A DNA stretch of 64,000 bases from Pseudodesulfovibrio sp. (GTDB lineage Bacteria > Desulfobacterota > Desulfovibrionia > Desulfovibrionales > Desulfovibrionaceae). The stretch spans positions 1-64,000 of the forward strand of contig JAEINO010000011.1 in NCBI GenBank assembly GCA_016342345.1. Direction: 5' to 3'. Made by a program: the position numbers and the translations under genes. Under the pieces are notes generated by a model, which saw nothing but the letters and a program-made list of their open reading frames with translations, ran no database searches and was not told the origin of the DNA. Below, piece after piece: positions 44,659 to 51,802 of this stretch; within the stretch, counting starts at the first letter, position 1; each line of letters starts with the position of its first letter.

Positions 44659-45921
44659 ATGTCGTCAAAAAAGAAACCCCAGCCACGAATGCTTTTCGCT
44701 TCAAAAGATGGCGAAATCTACGATCACCCCGATTTACTACTCATGTGCCGCAGAGGAGATGAATTCGGACTCCCCCGGCCGGATGAAATCACGCCACTTC
44801 CTCCCGAATCCGAGTTTTTCCTGTTACCGGGCCGACATGCCATGGGCTACAGTCAGGAAACAGGCCAGGCTGAAGTCATGGAAGATCTGGCTGTGGCAGC
44901 ATTTGCAAGTCCAGGCCATACGCTCACAGGCATTGCAGCCTACGAGACCGACGATGATGCCCCGACTCTGCCGCTGCTCTCCTACGGAGCCATTGGGTAT
45001 GCCAATGGAAGATTCTGGGTCTGCGCCAAGAAGGTGGATGAGGATAAGCGACAGATATTCAAACATATTCCACAAGAACGCATCGAAGCTGGCGCACACC
45101 AGCTCATCAATGAAATGCCGGAGAACCGACTCATCAATCATCTGGCTGGTTGTGCCCTGGCAAGCGGTTGCCCGGCAGCCAAAAATCTCGCGCTGGGCCG
45201 TTTCGAGTGTCCGCTTCCCACAGCCCAAGCATGTAACGCAGCCTGTGTTGGCTGCATTTCATATCAGCCCGAGGACTCCGGCTTTCCATCCCCGCAATGC
45301 AGGATAACCTTCACCCCCACTATCAAGGAAATCGTGGAGGTCATGCGTCGCCACGAATCCCGCGAACGCCGCCCCATATTTTCCTTCGGACAAGGGTGCG
45401 AAGGCGAGCCTCTGCTCGAAGCGGAGCTCATATGCGATGCCATCAAGGAATATAGGGCAGATGGAGGTACCGGCACAGTCAATATCAACACCAACGGCTC
45501 CAGACACCAAGTCATGCCAGCCATCAAGGTTGCAGGGGTCAACTCCATTCGGGTCAGCCTCAATTCTGCCCGCCCCGGACCGTATGAAGCATACTACCGC
45601 CCCAAAAGCTTTACCTTTGACGATGTGCGTGAAACCATTTCCAAAGCACACGATGTCGGGCTGCACGTCAGCCTCAATCTGCTTTACTTTCCCGGCATAA
45701 CCGACACCGAAGAAGAACTGGAAGCACTCATAGAACTCGGCGAGACCTGCAAATATGATTTTGTTCAGCTACGCAATCTCAACCTCGACCCGGAACTCTA
45801 TCTCAACCTCATGAGGCCCTTTGGTCACTCCCCCAGCATGGGATTCTTAAATTTCAAGAAACGCCTCAAAACAGCGCTGTCCTGGATTGAATACGGATAT
45901 TTCAATCCATACCTCGGATAA
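44659..45921 (+). CDS. Radical SAM protein
   Basis: 420 residues from ATG 44659; an in-frame TTG at 44623 would add 12. The 4Fe-4S motif is CNAACVGC (CxxxCxxC) near residue 195, followed by FSFGQGCEGEPLLEAE and VNINTNGS, characteristic of the AdoMet barrel. The first 190 residues form an unrecognised N-terminal domain (DHPDLLLMCRRGDEFGLP) ending in a small Cys cluster region. It is not MoaA, PqqE or a known maturase by these signs. The reaction is unknown. It stands alone, convergent with the rhodanese gene. Confidence 0.85.
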   Translation: MSSKKKPQPRMLFASKDGEIYDHPDLLLMCRRGDEFGLPRPDEITPLPPESEFFLLPGRHAMGYSQETGQAEVMEDLAVAAFASPGHTLTGIAAYETDDDAPTLPLLSYGAIGYANGRFWVCAKKVDEDKRQIFKHIPQERIEAGAHQLINEMPENRLINHLAGCALASGCPAAKNLALGRFECPLPTAQACNAACVGCISYQPEDSGFPSPQCRITFTPTIKEIVEVMRRHESRERRPIFSFGQGCEGEPLLEAELICDAIKEYRADGGTGTVNINTNGSRHQVMPAIKVAGVNSIRVSLNSARPGPYEAYYRPKSFTFDDVRETISKAHDVGLHVSLNLLYFPGITDTEEELEALIELGETCKYDFVQLRNLNLDPELYLNLMRPFGHSPSMGFLNFKKRLKTALSWIEYGYFNPYLG

Positions 45922-45951
45922 AACGCACACATTTTCCACACACCAAACAAA

Positions 45952-45980
45952 AAAAGACCATCAATAACTGGTGGTCTTTT
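45952..45980. terminator. Bidirectional terminator between radical SAM and rhodanese genes
   Basis: AAAAGACCA (45952-45960) / TGGTCTTTT (45972-45980), with flanking A and T tracts that suit both convergent genes. Confidence 0.85.
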
Positions 45981-45997
45981 CTTGTTTGGCCATAAAA

Positions 45998-46435
45998 CTA
46001 TTTCTCTTGCATCGGGTATCCACGTTCCACCCACTCGTCCCATCCGCCCTTGAGCGCGTAAACATCTGTCAATCCGGCCTTACCAAGCTGCAGTGCCACA
46101 CGGGCACTGGTATACTCATTGGGTCAGGCACAATACAGTACAAACGTCTTGTCTTCTGGAAGTTCTCCCACCCACGAGTCAACATCATTGTAGGCTTTAC
46201 GAACCGCATTCCTGATCATGATCTCGCTGCCCGTCCAGTCAGCACTGCGGCGCACATCGATTATCATGATATCCGGGGAATCAATCCTAGAAAGCAACTC
46301 ACTGGCTTCCATGCGCGGGACCTTGTCCCCAATGAATGCGGCTCCAGCCAGCGCCGATGTCACGACTTCCAGACAGCACGAGAACAGGATCAGGAACACA
46401 ATGGCTCCGCCGATAACACGCGTTTTACTTTTCAT
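45998..46435 (-). CDS. Membrane-anchored rhodanese, probable selenoprotein (in-frame UGA at codon 104)
   Basis: 145 residues if the TGA at 46124-46126 is read through. Before it: a membrane anchor (residues 7-30), MIIDVRRSADWTGSEI and VLYCA. After it, in the same frame: PNEYTSARVALQLGKAG, DVYALKGGWDEW and a normal TAG. Related rhodaneses have CxCPNE with Cys where the TGA sits, so UGA replaces a conserved Cys. Fifteen nt past the UGA a perfect hairpin AGTGCC-CGTGT-GGCACT (46108-46092) has a GU-containing loop, like a bacterial SECIS. AAGGAGAAGACTC precedes the ATG. A nonsense mutation is the alternative, but the intact downstream frame argues against it. No selA, selB or selC lies in the window. 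Confidence 0.78.
46092..46126 (-). promoter_or_regulatory. Candidate SECIS element
   Basis: UGA codon (46126-46124), 15-nt spacer, then stem AGTGCC / GGCACT closed by CGTGT. Apical loop 22-26 nt from the UGA and containing G-U fits bacterial SelB-binding hairpins. Confidence 0.6.
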
Positions 46436-46525
46436 GAGTCTTCTCCTTGAAATCTTCCTGAAAGATACTCTCAGATAACATCAAAAAGACTTGAAGCACT
46501 GTTATAATCCACTGGGACTCCCCAT

Positions 46526-46555
46526 AAAAAAACCCCGACTGCAATGCAATCGGGG
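46526..46555 (-). terminator. purM terminator
   Basis: On the reverse strand CCCCGA...TCGGGG with an inner TG/CA pair, followed by seven T. Confidence 0.85.
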
Positions 46556-46579
46556 CCTGAAGAATACGTTCGCAATTTC

Positions 46580-47641
46580 TTACGGAAACAGCACTTCCAC
46601 CTGCTCGGAAGCTGGCTTGCGCTTGACAATCTCACCTATGCGGTAAGCGTCGATATCATCCATGGAATCAAGCATTTCCAAGGCCTTGTCGGCTGTGTCC
46701 GCATCACAAATGAGAATGTACCCGATCCCGCAGTTGAAAATCTGAAGCATTTCGGGCCAGGAAAGCTCACCCTGCGCCTTGAGCCAATCAAAGATTGGAA
46801 GCATGGGCCAAGAGCCGAACTCGATCTTGGCGGAAGTCTCTTCAGGCAGAACACGCGGCACGTTGTCGTAAAAACCACCGCCAGTGACATGGACCATGCC
46901 CTTGATCTCAAGGGATTTCAGCAACTCGACCACCGGCCTCACATAGAGTTTGGTCGGCTGGATAAGCACCTCTGCCACGGTCCTGTCGGAACCAGGAAAG
47001 GACTCGTCGGCCTTGAGACCGGATTCGCCGAAAAGCTTGCGAATGAGTGAATACCCGTTGGAATGGGCACCGGATGAACCAAGGCCGATAAGCACATCGC
47101 CGGGAGTCACGGACTTGCCGGACACAACCTTGGGCGTATCAACCATACCAACTGCAAAACCGGACAGATCGTACTCGCCGTCAGGATAAAAACCGGGCAT
47201 CTCGGCGGTTTCTCCGCCCAGAAGTGCGCAATCAGAATCGCGACAGCCTTGGCATACACCGGAAACAACTTGCTCGGCCACGCCGGATTCGAGCTTGCCG
47301 GTGGCAAAATAATCGAGGAAGAAAAGTGGGGTCGCCCCTTGAACAAGCACATCATTCACGGACATGGCAACCAAATCGATACCCACGGTATCGTGTTTGT
47401 CGAACATGAAGGCAAGCTTGAGCTTGGTACCCACGCCATCGGCTCCGGCCACGAGCATGGGAGCCTCCATACCGGTCACGTTGGGCTTGAACAACCCTCC
47501 GAAACCTCCAATATCTGTTGCCACGCCGGGCGTGAAGGTGGATTTCACCATGTCTTTTATGCGGCTGACAAAAAGATTGCCCGCCTCGATGTTAACACCG
47601 GCTGCGGTATATGCTTGGGAACGTTTGGCACTGTCGCTCAT
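46580..47641 (-). CDS. purM: Phosphoribosylformylglycinamidine cyclo-ligase (AIR synthetase)
   Basis: 353 residues from ATG 47641 (MSDSAKRSQAYTAAGVNIEAG), after AGGAGCCAGAT; the longer frame is unsupported. The ATP/magnesium-binding loop is VAGADGVGTKLKLAF, with GIDLVAMSVNDVLVQGA and LLGGETAEMPGFY, all family signatures. Converts FGAM to aminoimidazole ribonucleotide in purine synthesis. No other pur gene is adjacent. Confidence 0.97.
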   Translation of the reverse strand: MSDSAKRSQAYTAAGVNIEAGNLFVSRIKDMVKSTFTPGVATDIGGFGGLFKPNVTGMEAPMLVAGADGVGTKLKLAFMFDKHDTVGIDLVAMSVNDVLVQGATPLFFLDYFATGKLESGVAEQVVSGVCQGCRDSDCALLGGETAEMPGFYPDGEYDLSGFAVGMVDTPKVVSGKSVTPGDVLIGLGSSGAHSNGYSLIRKLFGESGLKADESFPGSDRTVAEVLIQPTKLYVRPVVELLKSLEIKGMVHVTGGGFYDNVPRVLPEETSAKIEFGSWPMLPIFDWLKAQGELSWPEMLQIFNCGIGYILICDADTADKALEMLDSMDDIDAYRIGEIVKRKPASEQVEVLFP

Positions 47642-49989: not shown

Positions 49990-50143
49990 GGGAAACGCTG
50001 ATTAATTCAATCTTCAGGAAGTGCTGTAAAATTATTCGCGGGCAAGGCGCGCAAAAAAGTCAAGGCTGACGCGTGCTTCCTGCACGCTAGGGTTTGATTT
50101 TTTTGCAGCAACGAAGCCAGAGGGCAATTATGCAGTACTTCCC
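49990..50143 (+). mobile_element. 154-bp TA-flanked hairpin element, copy A4
   Basis: Between TA 49988-49989 and 50144-50145. Same subtype as A2 with perfect GCGTGC-TTCCT-GCACGC. Its right edge makes the TAG stop of the RTX gene. Confidence 0.85.
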
Positions 50144-51591
50144 TAGTGGTCTTCGTTCAACCAAGCGGGGTCGAATTCGGTAGAGCCATCCACCTGGCTG
50201 GATGACAGCTCATTTCCCGCACTAACCCAGACTTCGTTGGCGGTCATTTCTACGCCTTGAAGAGTGAGCGTTGTTTCACCATATGAAATAACGGTATTGC
50301 CGCCATCTGAGGACACATTAAGCTGATCAGGCGACGTCAACCCCTGAAACTGGAGTGTGTCTTCTGCTGGATTGAAATCAGTAATAGTATCTGAACCATC
50401 ATTAGCTCCATACACGAAGATATCGTTTCCCGCTCCGCCCGTGAGGATGTCGTTGCCAGTGCCACCATCCATTGTGTCGTTGCCATCACCACCATACATT
50501 AAGTCATGACCATCGCCGCCACTCAGAATGTCATCGCCAGCGTCGCCTCCTATTGTATCGTTGCCAGAGCCGCCATCGACGACATCGCTTCCTTCTCCGC
50601 CCACAAGAAAATCGTTGCCTTTTTCGCCATACAGAGTGTCATCACCAGCACCACCATTCATCGTGTCGTCGGCATCGTTGTCCCAGCCCGTGTAGGATTC
50701 GTCGTGCGCCATGCCGCCCTTCATAACATCGTTACCAGCACCGCCATTCATAGTATCGTTGCCACGACCACCATTCATCGTGTCGTTGCCATCGCCGCCA
50801 GTCATCTCGTCATCTCCAGAGCCGCCATTCATGTTATCGTTACCAACGCCGCCATGCATTGTGTCAGCGTGAGCACCGCCATCCATGTAGTCGTTCCCAG
50901 AACCACCATGCATATAGTCATCGCTAGTGCCGCCAAACATAGAGTCGTGGCCAGCCCCGCCATCGAGGGAATCGTCCCAACGACCGCCATCCATAAAGTC
51001 ATTGCCAGAACCGCCATCCATTGTATCATCGTGATCGCCGCCAAGCATGGAGTCGTTTCCAGTGCCTCCTTTCATCATGTCCATACCTGAACCACCACGC
51101 ATTGTGTCATCGCCAGAACCGCCATCCATATAATCGCTGGAAGTATTGCTTTCACCAGAAGACTCACCCCAGAAATCGCCCTCCATTTTGTCATTGCCGC
51201 TGCCGCCATACAGCTTGTCATGCCCCTCCCCGCCTCTTATCCAGTCGTCGCCAGACAGACCATACAGCGTGTCATGCCCGTCTCCGCCATCCAAGCAGTT
51301 GCTGGGTGCAAGTAAACTATCAATCGTAATATCGTTTTCACTAAAAGCAGAAAGTTTATGCGTCTTACCACCGACCACCTGCTCTAATTCCTGATCAGAT
51401 AACTCACCCTCTGGAGGCGTCAAAGCCTGACGAATTTCCTCAATACTTACAGGTATATCACGCGCCTCAGCATATTTTTGAACTTCAGCAATGAGGGCTT
51501 CTGGCGAGGAACTTCCTGCTAGCTTCGAACGGAAGTCAGGGTCATTTGCTATTTGTGTGTACAGTGCGCGGGCGTTGTTCGGTGGGGTCAT
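50143..51591 (-). CDS. RTX calcium-binding protein with Nif11-like double-glycine leader
   Basis: 482 residues from ATG 51591 (AAGGA 10 nt upstream). Residues 1-75 look like a Nif11-type leader: NARALYTQIANDPDFRSKL, ALIAEVQKYAEARDIPVS and SDQELEQVVGGK, with the cleavage Gly-Gly at 74-75. Residues 100-385 are about thirty RTX nonapeptides (GGxGxDxxx, many GGSGND, MDGG and MHGG variants) that bind calcium in a beta-roll. The tail (GSDTITDFNPAEDTLQFQG ... TLTLQGVEMTANEVWVSAG) is a type I secretion-like end. Presumably exported through a peptidase-containing ABC transporter, but none is adjacent. The repeats are unusually uniform, suggesting recent expansion. TAG stop is at hairpin element A4. 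Confidence 0.85.
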   Translation of the reverse strand: MTPPNNARALYTQIANDPDFRSKLAGSSSPEALIAEVQKYAEARDIPVSIEEIRQALTPPEGELSDQELEQVVGGKTHKLSAFSENDITIDSLLAPSNCLDGGDGHDTLYGLSGDDWIRGGEGHDKLYGGSGNDKMEGDFWGESSGESNTSSDYMDGGSGDDTMRGGSGMDMMKGGTGNDSMLGGDHDDTMDGGSGNDFMDGGRWDDSLDGGAGHDSMFGGTSDDYMHGGSGNDYMDGGAHADTMHGGVGNDNMNGGSGDDEMTGGDGNDTMNGGRGNDTMNGGAGNDVMKGGMAHDESYTGWDNDADDTMNGGAGDDTLYGEKGNDFLVGGEGSDVVDGGSGNDTIGGDAGDDILSGGDGHDLMYGGDGNDTMDGGTGNDILTGGAGNDIFVYGANDGSDTITDFNPAEDTLQFQGLTSPDQLNVSSDGGNTVISYGETTLTLQGVEMTANEVWVSAGNELSSSQVDGSTEFDPAWLNEDH

Positions 51592-51802
51592 GGGCAAGAG
51601 TTCCTTATAGAGTGTGCATTGACCAAGAGGAATTGAGTTTCATTAAGTAGTAGATGCTGTATCAGATAGAATAGTTTCATTAAAGTTAAAATCACTGAAC
51701 ATTAAGCGTAGGCTGCTTGAAACTGGTACAGAACAGTGGTACATTCAACACACCAAGAGACAAGGGTAACATGTTGAGATGATAGCGATTAATATTTAAC
51801 TC

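What the first reader, a model, noticed from the sequence alone, without database searches (positions are those of the whole stretch)
45998..46435. Membrane-anchored rhodanese with in-frame UGA replacing a conserved Cys and a SECIS-like hairpin: probable selenoprotein
The rhodanese frame continues for 41 codons past a single TGA with full family similarity and a normal stop. The TGA lies in YCA-U-PNE, where related proteins have CxCPNE. A perfect 6-bp hairpin with a GU-containing loop starts 15 nt downstream, as in bacterial SECIS elements. Desulfovibrio-type organisms are known Sec users. Automatic annotation would truncate or call it a pseudogene.
Basis: partly seen in the sequence, partly recalled or inferred. 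Interest (0 to 1): 0.85.

Follow-up and report, generated by a model that had tools for sequence, protein, structure and literature searches.

The report
Selenium-containing rhodanese, known family member
A small exported sulfur-handling protein in a sulfate-reducing bacterium uses a 'stop' codon to insert the rare amino acid selenocysteine next to its active-site cysteine; the gene is real and intact, but its family is already catalogued.

Summary
On the minus strand (46435-45998) a 145-residue rhodanese is interrupted once, by UGA at codon 104 (YCA-U-PNEYTS), and runs 41 codons further to TAA. The genome has selA, selB, selD and tRNA-Sec. UGA sits in the same column in 73 of 82 related loci, including all 11 genus copies over the family cut-off, and in 77 of 80 named genome loci. 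By energy alone the hairpin 15 nt downstream is ordinary (z 0.16). Across relatives its five core pairs hold in 359 of 360 cases, against about 223 expected from synonymous codon choice, with compensatory changes. Of 9 relatives without Sec, 8 lack the full stem. It meets the loop, stem and spacing rules of the published bacterial SECIS model.

It is not new in kind: NCBIfam NF041203 and two reviews list this CxU family. Function is untested; my best guess is an exported persulfide reductase using a Cys102/Sec104 pair.

The least expected result lies outside the window: 12 of 134 distinct Sec relatives carry UGA at both positions (UxU), a form I did not find in print in a few searches.

The parts
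45998..46435 (-). selenoprotein gene, NF041203 rhodanese_LYCAU family, 145 residues + TAA, Sec at codon 104
46124..46126 (-). UGA codon 104, read as selenocysteine
   Evidence: same column is TGA in 73 of 82 loci and 77 of 80 named loci
46091..46109 (-). SECIS hairpin inside the coding sequence: 7 bp, loop CGUGU, loop starts 21 nt after the UGA
   Evidence: model constraints
46349..46426 (-). N-terminal helix (residues 4-29), signal peptide or membrane anchor
   Evidence: model; no signal-peptide program was run
46530..46558 (-). terminator-like hairpin after purM, upstream of the gene
   Evidence: 2 such sites found in the region, shuffles 0.8 on average
45952..45980 (.). terminator-like hairpin in the convergent gap downstream; the scan listed it on the + strand

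Best explanation
A bacterial selenoprotein gene of the NF041203 (rhodanese_LYCAU) family. SHOWN by comparison (about 0.97): the UGA is a conserved Sec codon, served by the genome's own SelA/SelB/SelD/tRNA-Sec and by a SECIS hairpin within the coding sequence, and the 41 codons after it are coding. LIKELY (about 0.85): the protein is exported and works in the periplasm. INFERRED (about 0.4): Cys102 takes up sulfane sulfur as a persulfide, Sec104 two residues on attacks it and releases sulfide, and the Cys-Sec bond is then reduced by a periplasmic electron donor, so it acts as a persulfide (or perselenide) reductase rather than a plain sulfurtransferase. The confidence given is for the selenoprotein part.
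For: Sec machinery complete. NF041203 155.1 bits, cut-off 115. TGA in the same column in 73 of 82 loci and 77 of 80 named loci. Core stem: 359 of 360 pairs in 72 distinct Sec sequences against a mean of 222.6 (sd 7.4, maximum 250) in 2000 synonymous draws; 71 of 72 Sec but 1 of 9 non-Sec have all five pairs. Second set: 75 of 77 Sec loci have all five pairs, two have four; the Cys member L194 has one. Stem kept through changes that alter the protein in L085, L095, L074. pN/pS after the UGA 0.37, off-frame 1.19 and 1.25. Rhodanese fold. For the redox reading: positions 102 and 104 invariant with U read as C; two members fused to multihaem cytochrome c (L027, L088).
Against: Hairpin energy is at the shuffle mean. 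No protein-level data exist here. One alignment to a solved rhodanese (6mxv) sets its Cys opposite Sec104, not Cys102. 25 of 36 genus genomes have no match over the cut-off, so the gene is not essential to the genus. Six of 9 non-Sec relatives have Ser and one Ala instead of Cys, so the second chalcogen is not needed in every member. No electron donor is encoded beside the gene in the window.
Confidence: 0.93

Rival explanations
1. Selenoprotein, but with a different job: a sulfur or selenium carrier (perselenide delivery), or a metal- or oxyanion-binding CxU protein, rather than a persulfide reductase.
For: A rhodanese that carries a perselenide is known from the reference list seen in PMC5877670 (title of a cited work only). 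A permease-like gene sits directly upstream in 31 of 78 named loci, which could point to uptake of a sulfur or selenium compound.
Against: An invariant two-chalcogen pair and cytochrome fusions fit redox work better. The window genome has no match to the permease query.
Confidence: 0.35
2. A decaying or truncated gene: the TGA is a true stop and the rest is residue.
For: The part before the TGA alone just reaches the Pfam cut-off (22.6 against 22.2 bits). A few relatives do carry other stops: L106 and L055 contain TAA.
Against: One TGA at one column in relatives from many families, protein-level selection after it, and a stem conserved beyond synonymous chance.
Confidence: 0.02
3. UGA is read by another route (suppression, or another amino acid such as Trp), not as Sec.
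For: None specific was found.
Against: A complete Sec set, a hairpin that goes with Sec status (71 of 72 Sec, 1 of 9 non-Sec), and Cys as the residue in L076, L096 and L194; no Trp was seen at the column.
Confidence: 0.01

Closest known systems
NCBIfam NF041203 rhodanese_LYCAU; 'Rhodanese-like domain-containing protein form 3' (CxU, TKB26178.1) in PMC13188914; [quoted passage not shown]
   Same: 155.1 bits against a cut-off of 115; CxU motif, one Sec, rhodanese domain.
   Different: No difference in kind found. The gene in the window is one more member; some relatives outside the window have UxU instead of CxU.
Canonical single-domain rhodaneses (GlpE/PspE type)
   Same: Fold and the YC at the end of the active-site strand.
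   Different: Loop two residues longer, no GxR, Sec at Cys+2; GlpE model NF001195 scores only 16.2 bits, cut-off 102.
TsoB, rhodanese/DsbD fusion-like selenoprotein (NF045694)
   Same: Sec in a rhodanese active-site loop.
   Different: UxxxxU and a DsbD-like fusion; the window protein scores 20.6 bits, cut-off 805.

Membership tests
NF041203 rhodanese_LYCAU | Score over the curated cut-off | tested here: met
   155.1 bits, cut-off 115, positions 6-126 of 126
NF041203 rhodanese_LYCAU | LYCAU-type motif (CxU) | tested here: met
   VLYCAUPNEYTS; family listed as CxU
Bacterial selenoprotein | In-frame UGA conserved in relatives and aligned with Cys in some | tested here: met
   73 of 82 and 77 of 80 loci with TGA; 3 with Cys
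Bacterial selenoprotein | SECIS: loop 3-9 nt, stem 4-16 bp, G in the first two loop positions, 16-37 nt from UGA to loop (PMC13188914, passage) | tested here: met
   5 nt, 7 bp, G at position 2, 21 nt. The model's energy rule was cut off in the passage seen and was not tested.
Bacterial selenoprotein | selA, selB, selD and tRNA-Sec in the genome | tested here: met
Bacterial selenoprotein | Selenium present in the product | not testable with these tools
   needs 75Se labelling or mass spectrometry
Rhodanese fold | Rhodanese domain by sequence and structure | tested here: met
   Pfam 49.6 bits; model pLDDT 90.7; best PDB matches are rhodanese-like proteins
Rhodanese sulfurtransferase | Canonical active-site loop C-x-x-G-x-R | tested here: not met
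   loop is CAUPNEYTS, two residues longer
Rhodanese sulfurtransferase | Thiosulfate or mercaptopyruvate sulfurtransferase activity | not testable with these tools
   needs an assay

The most novel reading that the evidence does not exclude
The family toggles between Cys and Sec at the canonical rhodanese nucleophile itself. 12 of 134 distinct Sec rows read UGA-N-UGA (UxU), which would make a di-selenium rhodanese active site decoded with one visible SECIS; the label changes at least 5 times on well-supported branches. Together with cytochrome fusions and the permease pairing, the family may be a periplasmic persulfide or perselenide reductase wired to cytochromes, of which the window gene is the CxU form.
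Probability: 0.35. Interest if true: 0.55.

Novelty: new member of a known kind. Interest (0 to 1): 0.3.

Why it matters
It establishes one more selenoprotein in a Pseudodesulfovibrio-type genome and shows how conservation across relatives can settle a SECIS element that folding energy cannot. The plain bacterial code ends this frame at the UGA, so an annotation that does not look for Sec would cut the protein short. In the passages read the function of this family is not stated beyond a likely redox role; the CxU/UxU pair, the cytochrome fusions and the permease pairing give testable leads.

Tried and rejected
Pseudogene or true stop: rejected. Hairpin by energy: no support (z 0.16), so I turned to conservation and synonymous resampling. 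Rfam scan of the window at gathering scores: one tRNA, nothing at the gene. Viral relatives: 5 stretches matched a pattern, none encoded a relative. A permease partner in the window genome: none (one query protein; 4 of 41 genomes matched weakly). Promoter scan of 45850-46650: 0 found. purM beside 10 of 11 genus copies I read as position, not function.

Dropped or doubtful rows: L106 (frame ends at TAA before the motif; left out of the 82). L055 has a TAA after the TGA but was kept. L156 (script one residue off, visibly C-S-U) and L178 (wrong hit) were not counted as Sec. L017 was left out of pN/pS as a near-copy of L016. Of 83 phylum matches over the cut-off besides the window's own I took 69, plus one below it (L115); the 14 not taken are each listed with 1 or 2 TGA. 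The two locus sets overlap: L116 and L118 lie on contigs of the same length as those of L018 and L017.

Full report
OBSERVATION. The gene lies on the minus strand, 46435 to 45998. Read with TGA=U it gives 145 residues and TAA; the only TGA is codon 104, with 41 codons after it. Pfam Rhodanese scores 49.6 bits on the whole product and 22.6 bits, just over the cut-off of 22.2, on the part before the TGA. The hairpin described is present.

MACHINERY. The window's genome (4.15 Mb, 149 contigs, completeness listed as 100) has one match over the cut-off to each of SelA (608 bits), SelB (391), SelD (333, its frame also holding one TGA) and tRNA-Sec (76 bits). ARAGORN names the last tRNA-SeC, anticodon tca. 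Two genomes of the window's genus (G019, G035) have contigs of the same lengths as named Pseudodesulfovibrio MAG records (MC-06, OB3), so the host is most likely of that genus; no tool names the window's genome itself.

RELATIVES. In the genus, 11 of 36 genomes hold a match over the NF041203 cut-off, each with exactly one internal stop, a TGA; 25 have none over it. In a draw of 395 genomes of the phylum, 61 have a match over the cut-off. I examined 83 loci; 82 showed the motif. In 73 the codon at the Sec column is TGA; in 9 it is not (2 Cys, 6 Ser, 1 Ala). A second set, the 80 best named loci of genome contigs (289 candidates encoded a relative, 80 were kept), gave 77 TGA, one Cys (L194) and two rows that my script mis-registered (L156, visibly C-S-U, and L178). 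The two sets overlap, so they are not independent; on 144 distinct rows of both together, 134 are Sec.

SECIS. By energy the window stretch is ordinary (z 0.16). Conservation decides. Among 72 distinct Sec sequences all five core pairs form in 71, and 359 of 360 pairs are standard. Drawing synonymous codons from the pooled genes gives 222.6 pairs on average (sd 7.4, maximum 250 in 2000 draws). All 72 loops have G at position 2 followed by G or U. Of 9 non-Sec relatives one (L097, TCA) keeps all five pairs. In L085, L095 and L074 the stem is kept although the residues it encodes changed, which protein conservation cannot explain. In the second set 75 of 77 Sec loci have all five pairs and two have four; the Cys member L194 has one. 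The hairpin meets the loop, stem, G and spacing rules of the bacterial model in PMC13188914 (passage of its SECIS section); the energy rule was cut off in the passage and not tested. bSECISearch was not run.

SELECTION. Over 39 codons after the UGA, 10 genus copies give pN/pS 0.37, and 0.36 without the hairpin codons; the other two frames give 1.19 and 1.25. The 30 codons before the UGA give 0.53, but that comparison was anchored at the UGA without gaps and two to three copies have a one-codon deletion there, which inflates it. Synonymous differences are large (about 0.7), so the ratios are rough.

STRUCTURE AND ACTIVE SITE. AlphaFold2 with 38 sequences gives mean pLDDT 90.7 and an N-terminal helix 4-29. 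The best PDB matches are rhodanese-like proteins. Positions 102 and 104 are invariant, with U read as C, in 16 and in 38 sequences. Against canonical rhodaneses in related genomes (such as LLYCAAGYRS), VLYCAUPNEYTS keeps the Cys at the end of the strand and has a loop two residues longer, so Sec104 looks like an added second chalcogen. Against this, the alignment to 6mxv sets its Cys opposite residue 104. Of the 9 non-Sec members, 8 keep Cys102 while 104 is Ser, Ala or Cys, which fits Cys102 as the base nucleophile.

SURROUNDINGS. purM lies upstream on the same strand in 10 of 11 genus loci, and the radical SAM gene was matched in 7 of 11, one as a fragment (flanks of 1500 bases). A terminator-like hairpin follows purM and another lies in the downstream convergent gap; no consensus promoter was found. 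The gene is therefore probably transcribed alone. Elsewhere it follows a permease-like gene in 31 of 78 named loci, ending within 112 bases of the start in 30 of them. Two such proteins match Pfam AA_permease_2 (29.1 and 65.9 bits, cut-off 27); a third gave no Pfam match at 0.001. The window genome has no match to the one permease query tried. Two members continue into multihaem cytochrome c (L027, L088), which supports export and a link to electron transfer.

MECHANISM. Shown by comparison: Sec at codon 104. Likely: export, from the N-terminal helix and the cytochrome fusions. Inferred: Cys102 persulfide resolved by Sec104, then reduced by a periplasmic donor; I give this about 0.4. Carrier or delivery roles remain open.

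NOVELTY. NCBIfam NF041203 scores 155.1 bits, cut-off 115. The table of PMC13188914 lists 'Rhodanese-like domain-containing protein form 3, NF041203, CxU, 1, TKB26178.1' (passage), and PMC9312934 lists the same accession as COG0607 form 2, CxU (passage). NF041203 occurs in one paper of the library. So this is a new member of a known kind.

BY-PRODUCT. UGA also stands at the Cys102 position in L027, L054, L060, L064, L075, L084, L093, L094, L103 (9 of 73) and L141, L153, L173 (3 of 77). On a tree of 144 rows with the motif masked, the UxU label needs 10 changes (shuffled labels 11.7 on average, so it is only weakly clustered), at least 5 of them forced by starred branches; 60 of 141 inner branches are open. 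A search for UxU with selenoprotein found one paper, on SELENOP metal binding; UxU does not occur in the main texts of PMC13188914 and PMC9312934. That is the extent of my search, and NCBI's own records were not open to me.

Noticed in passing
L027, L054, L060, L064, L075, L084, L093, L094, L103, L141, L153, L173: Family members with UGA at both positions of the motif (UxU), so the canonical rhodanese Cys would also be Sec; spread over several lineages.
   Followed up: partly
L196-L200, L202 (6 loci): Another rhodanese with one in-frame TGA in YCRSFRU; in the five L196-L200 loci the frame goes on into a thioredoxin-like (ResA-like) part. NF045694 TsoB model 110.5 bits for L196, far below its cut-off of 805; the predicted hairpins differ between loci.
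   Followed up: partly
L201, L203: Rhodanese/DsbD-like frames with YUxxxxU, as described for TsoB (motif). Not scanned against the model.
   Followed up: no
L039: Two-rhodanese frame with TGA in FYCMGVRUPYS (CxxxxU) followed by a 7-bp hairpin; NF041203 66.8 bits, below cut-off.
   Followed up: partly
31 of 78 named loci, for example L125, L128: A permease-like gene of about 430 residues directly upstream of the Sec rhodanese on the same strand.
   Followed up: partly
L010: SelD of the window's genome has one in-frame TGA and is probably itself a selenoprotein.
   Followed up: no
window 50143-51597 (-): 484-residue RTX-repeat protein (13 HemolysinCabind stretches) with a weak, sub-cut-off Nif11-like leader ending in VVGG.
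   Followed up: no
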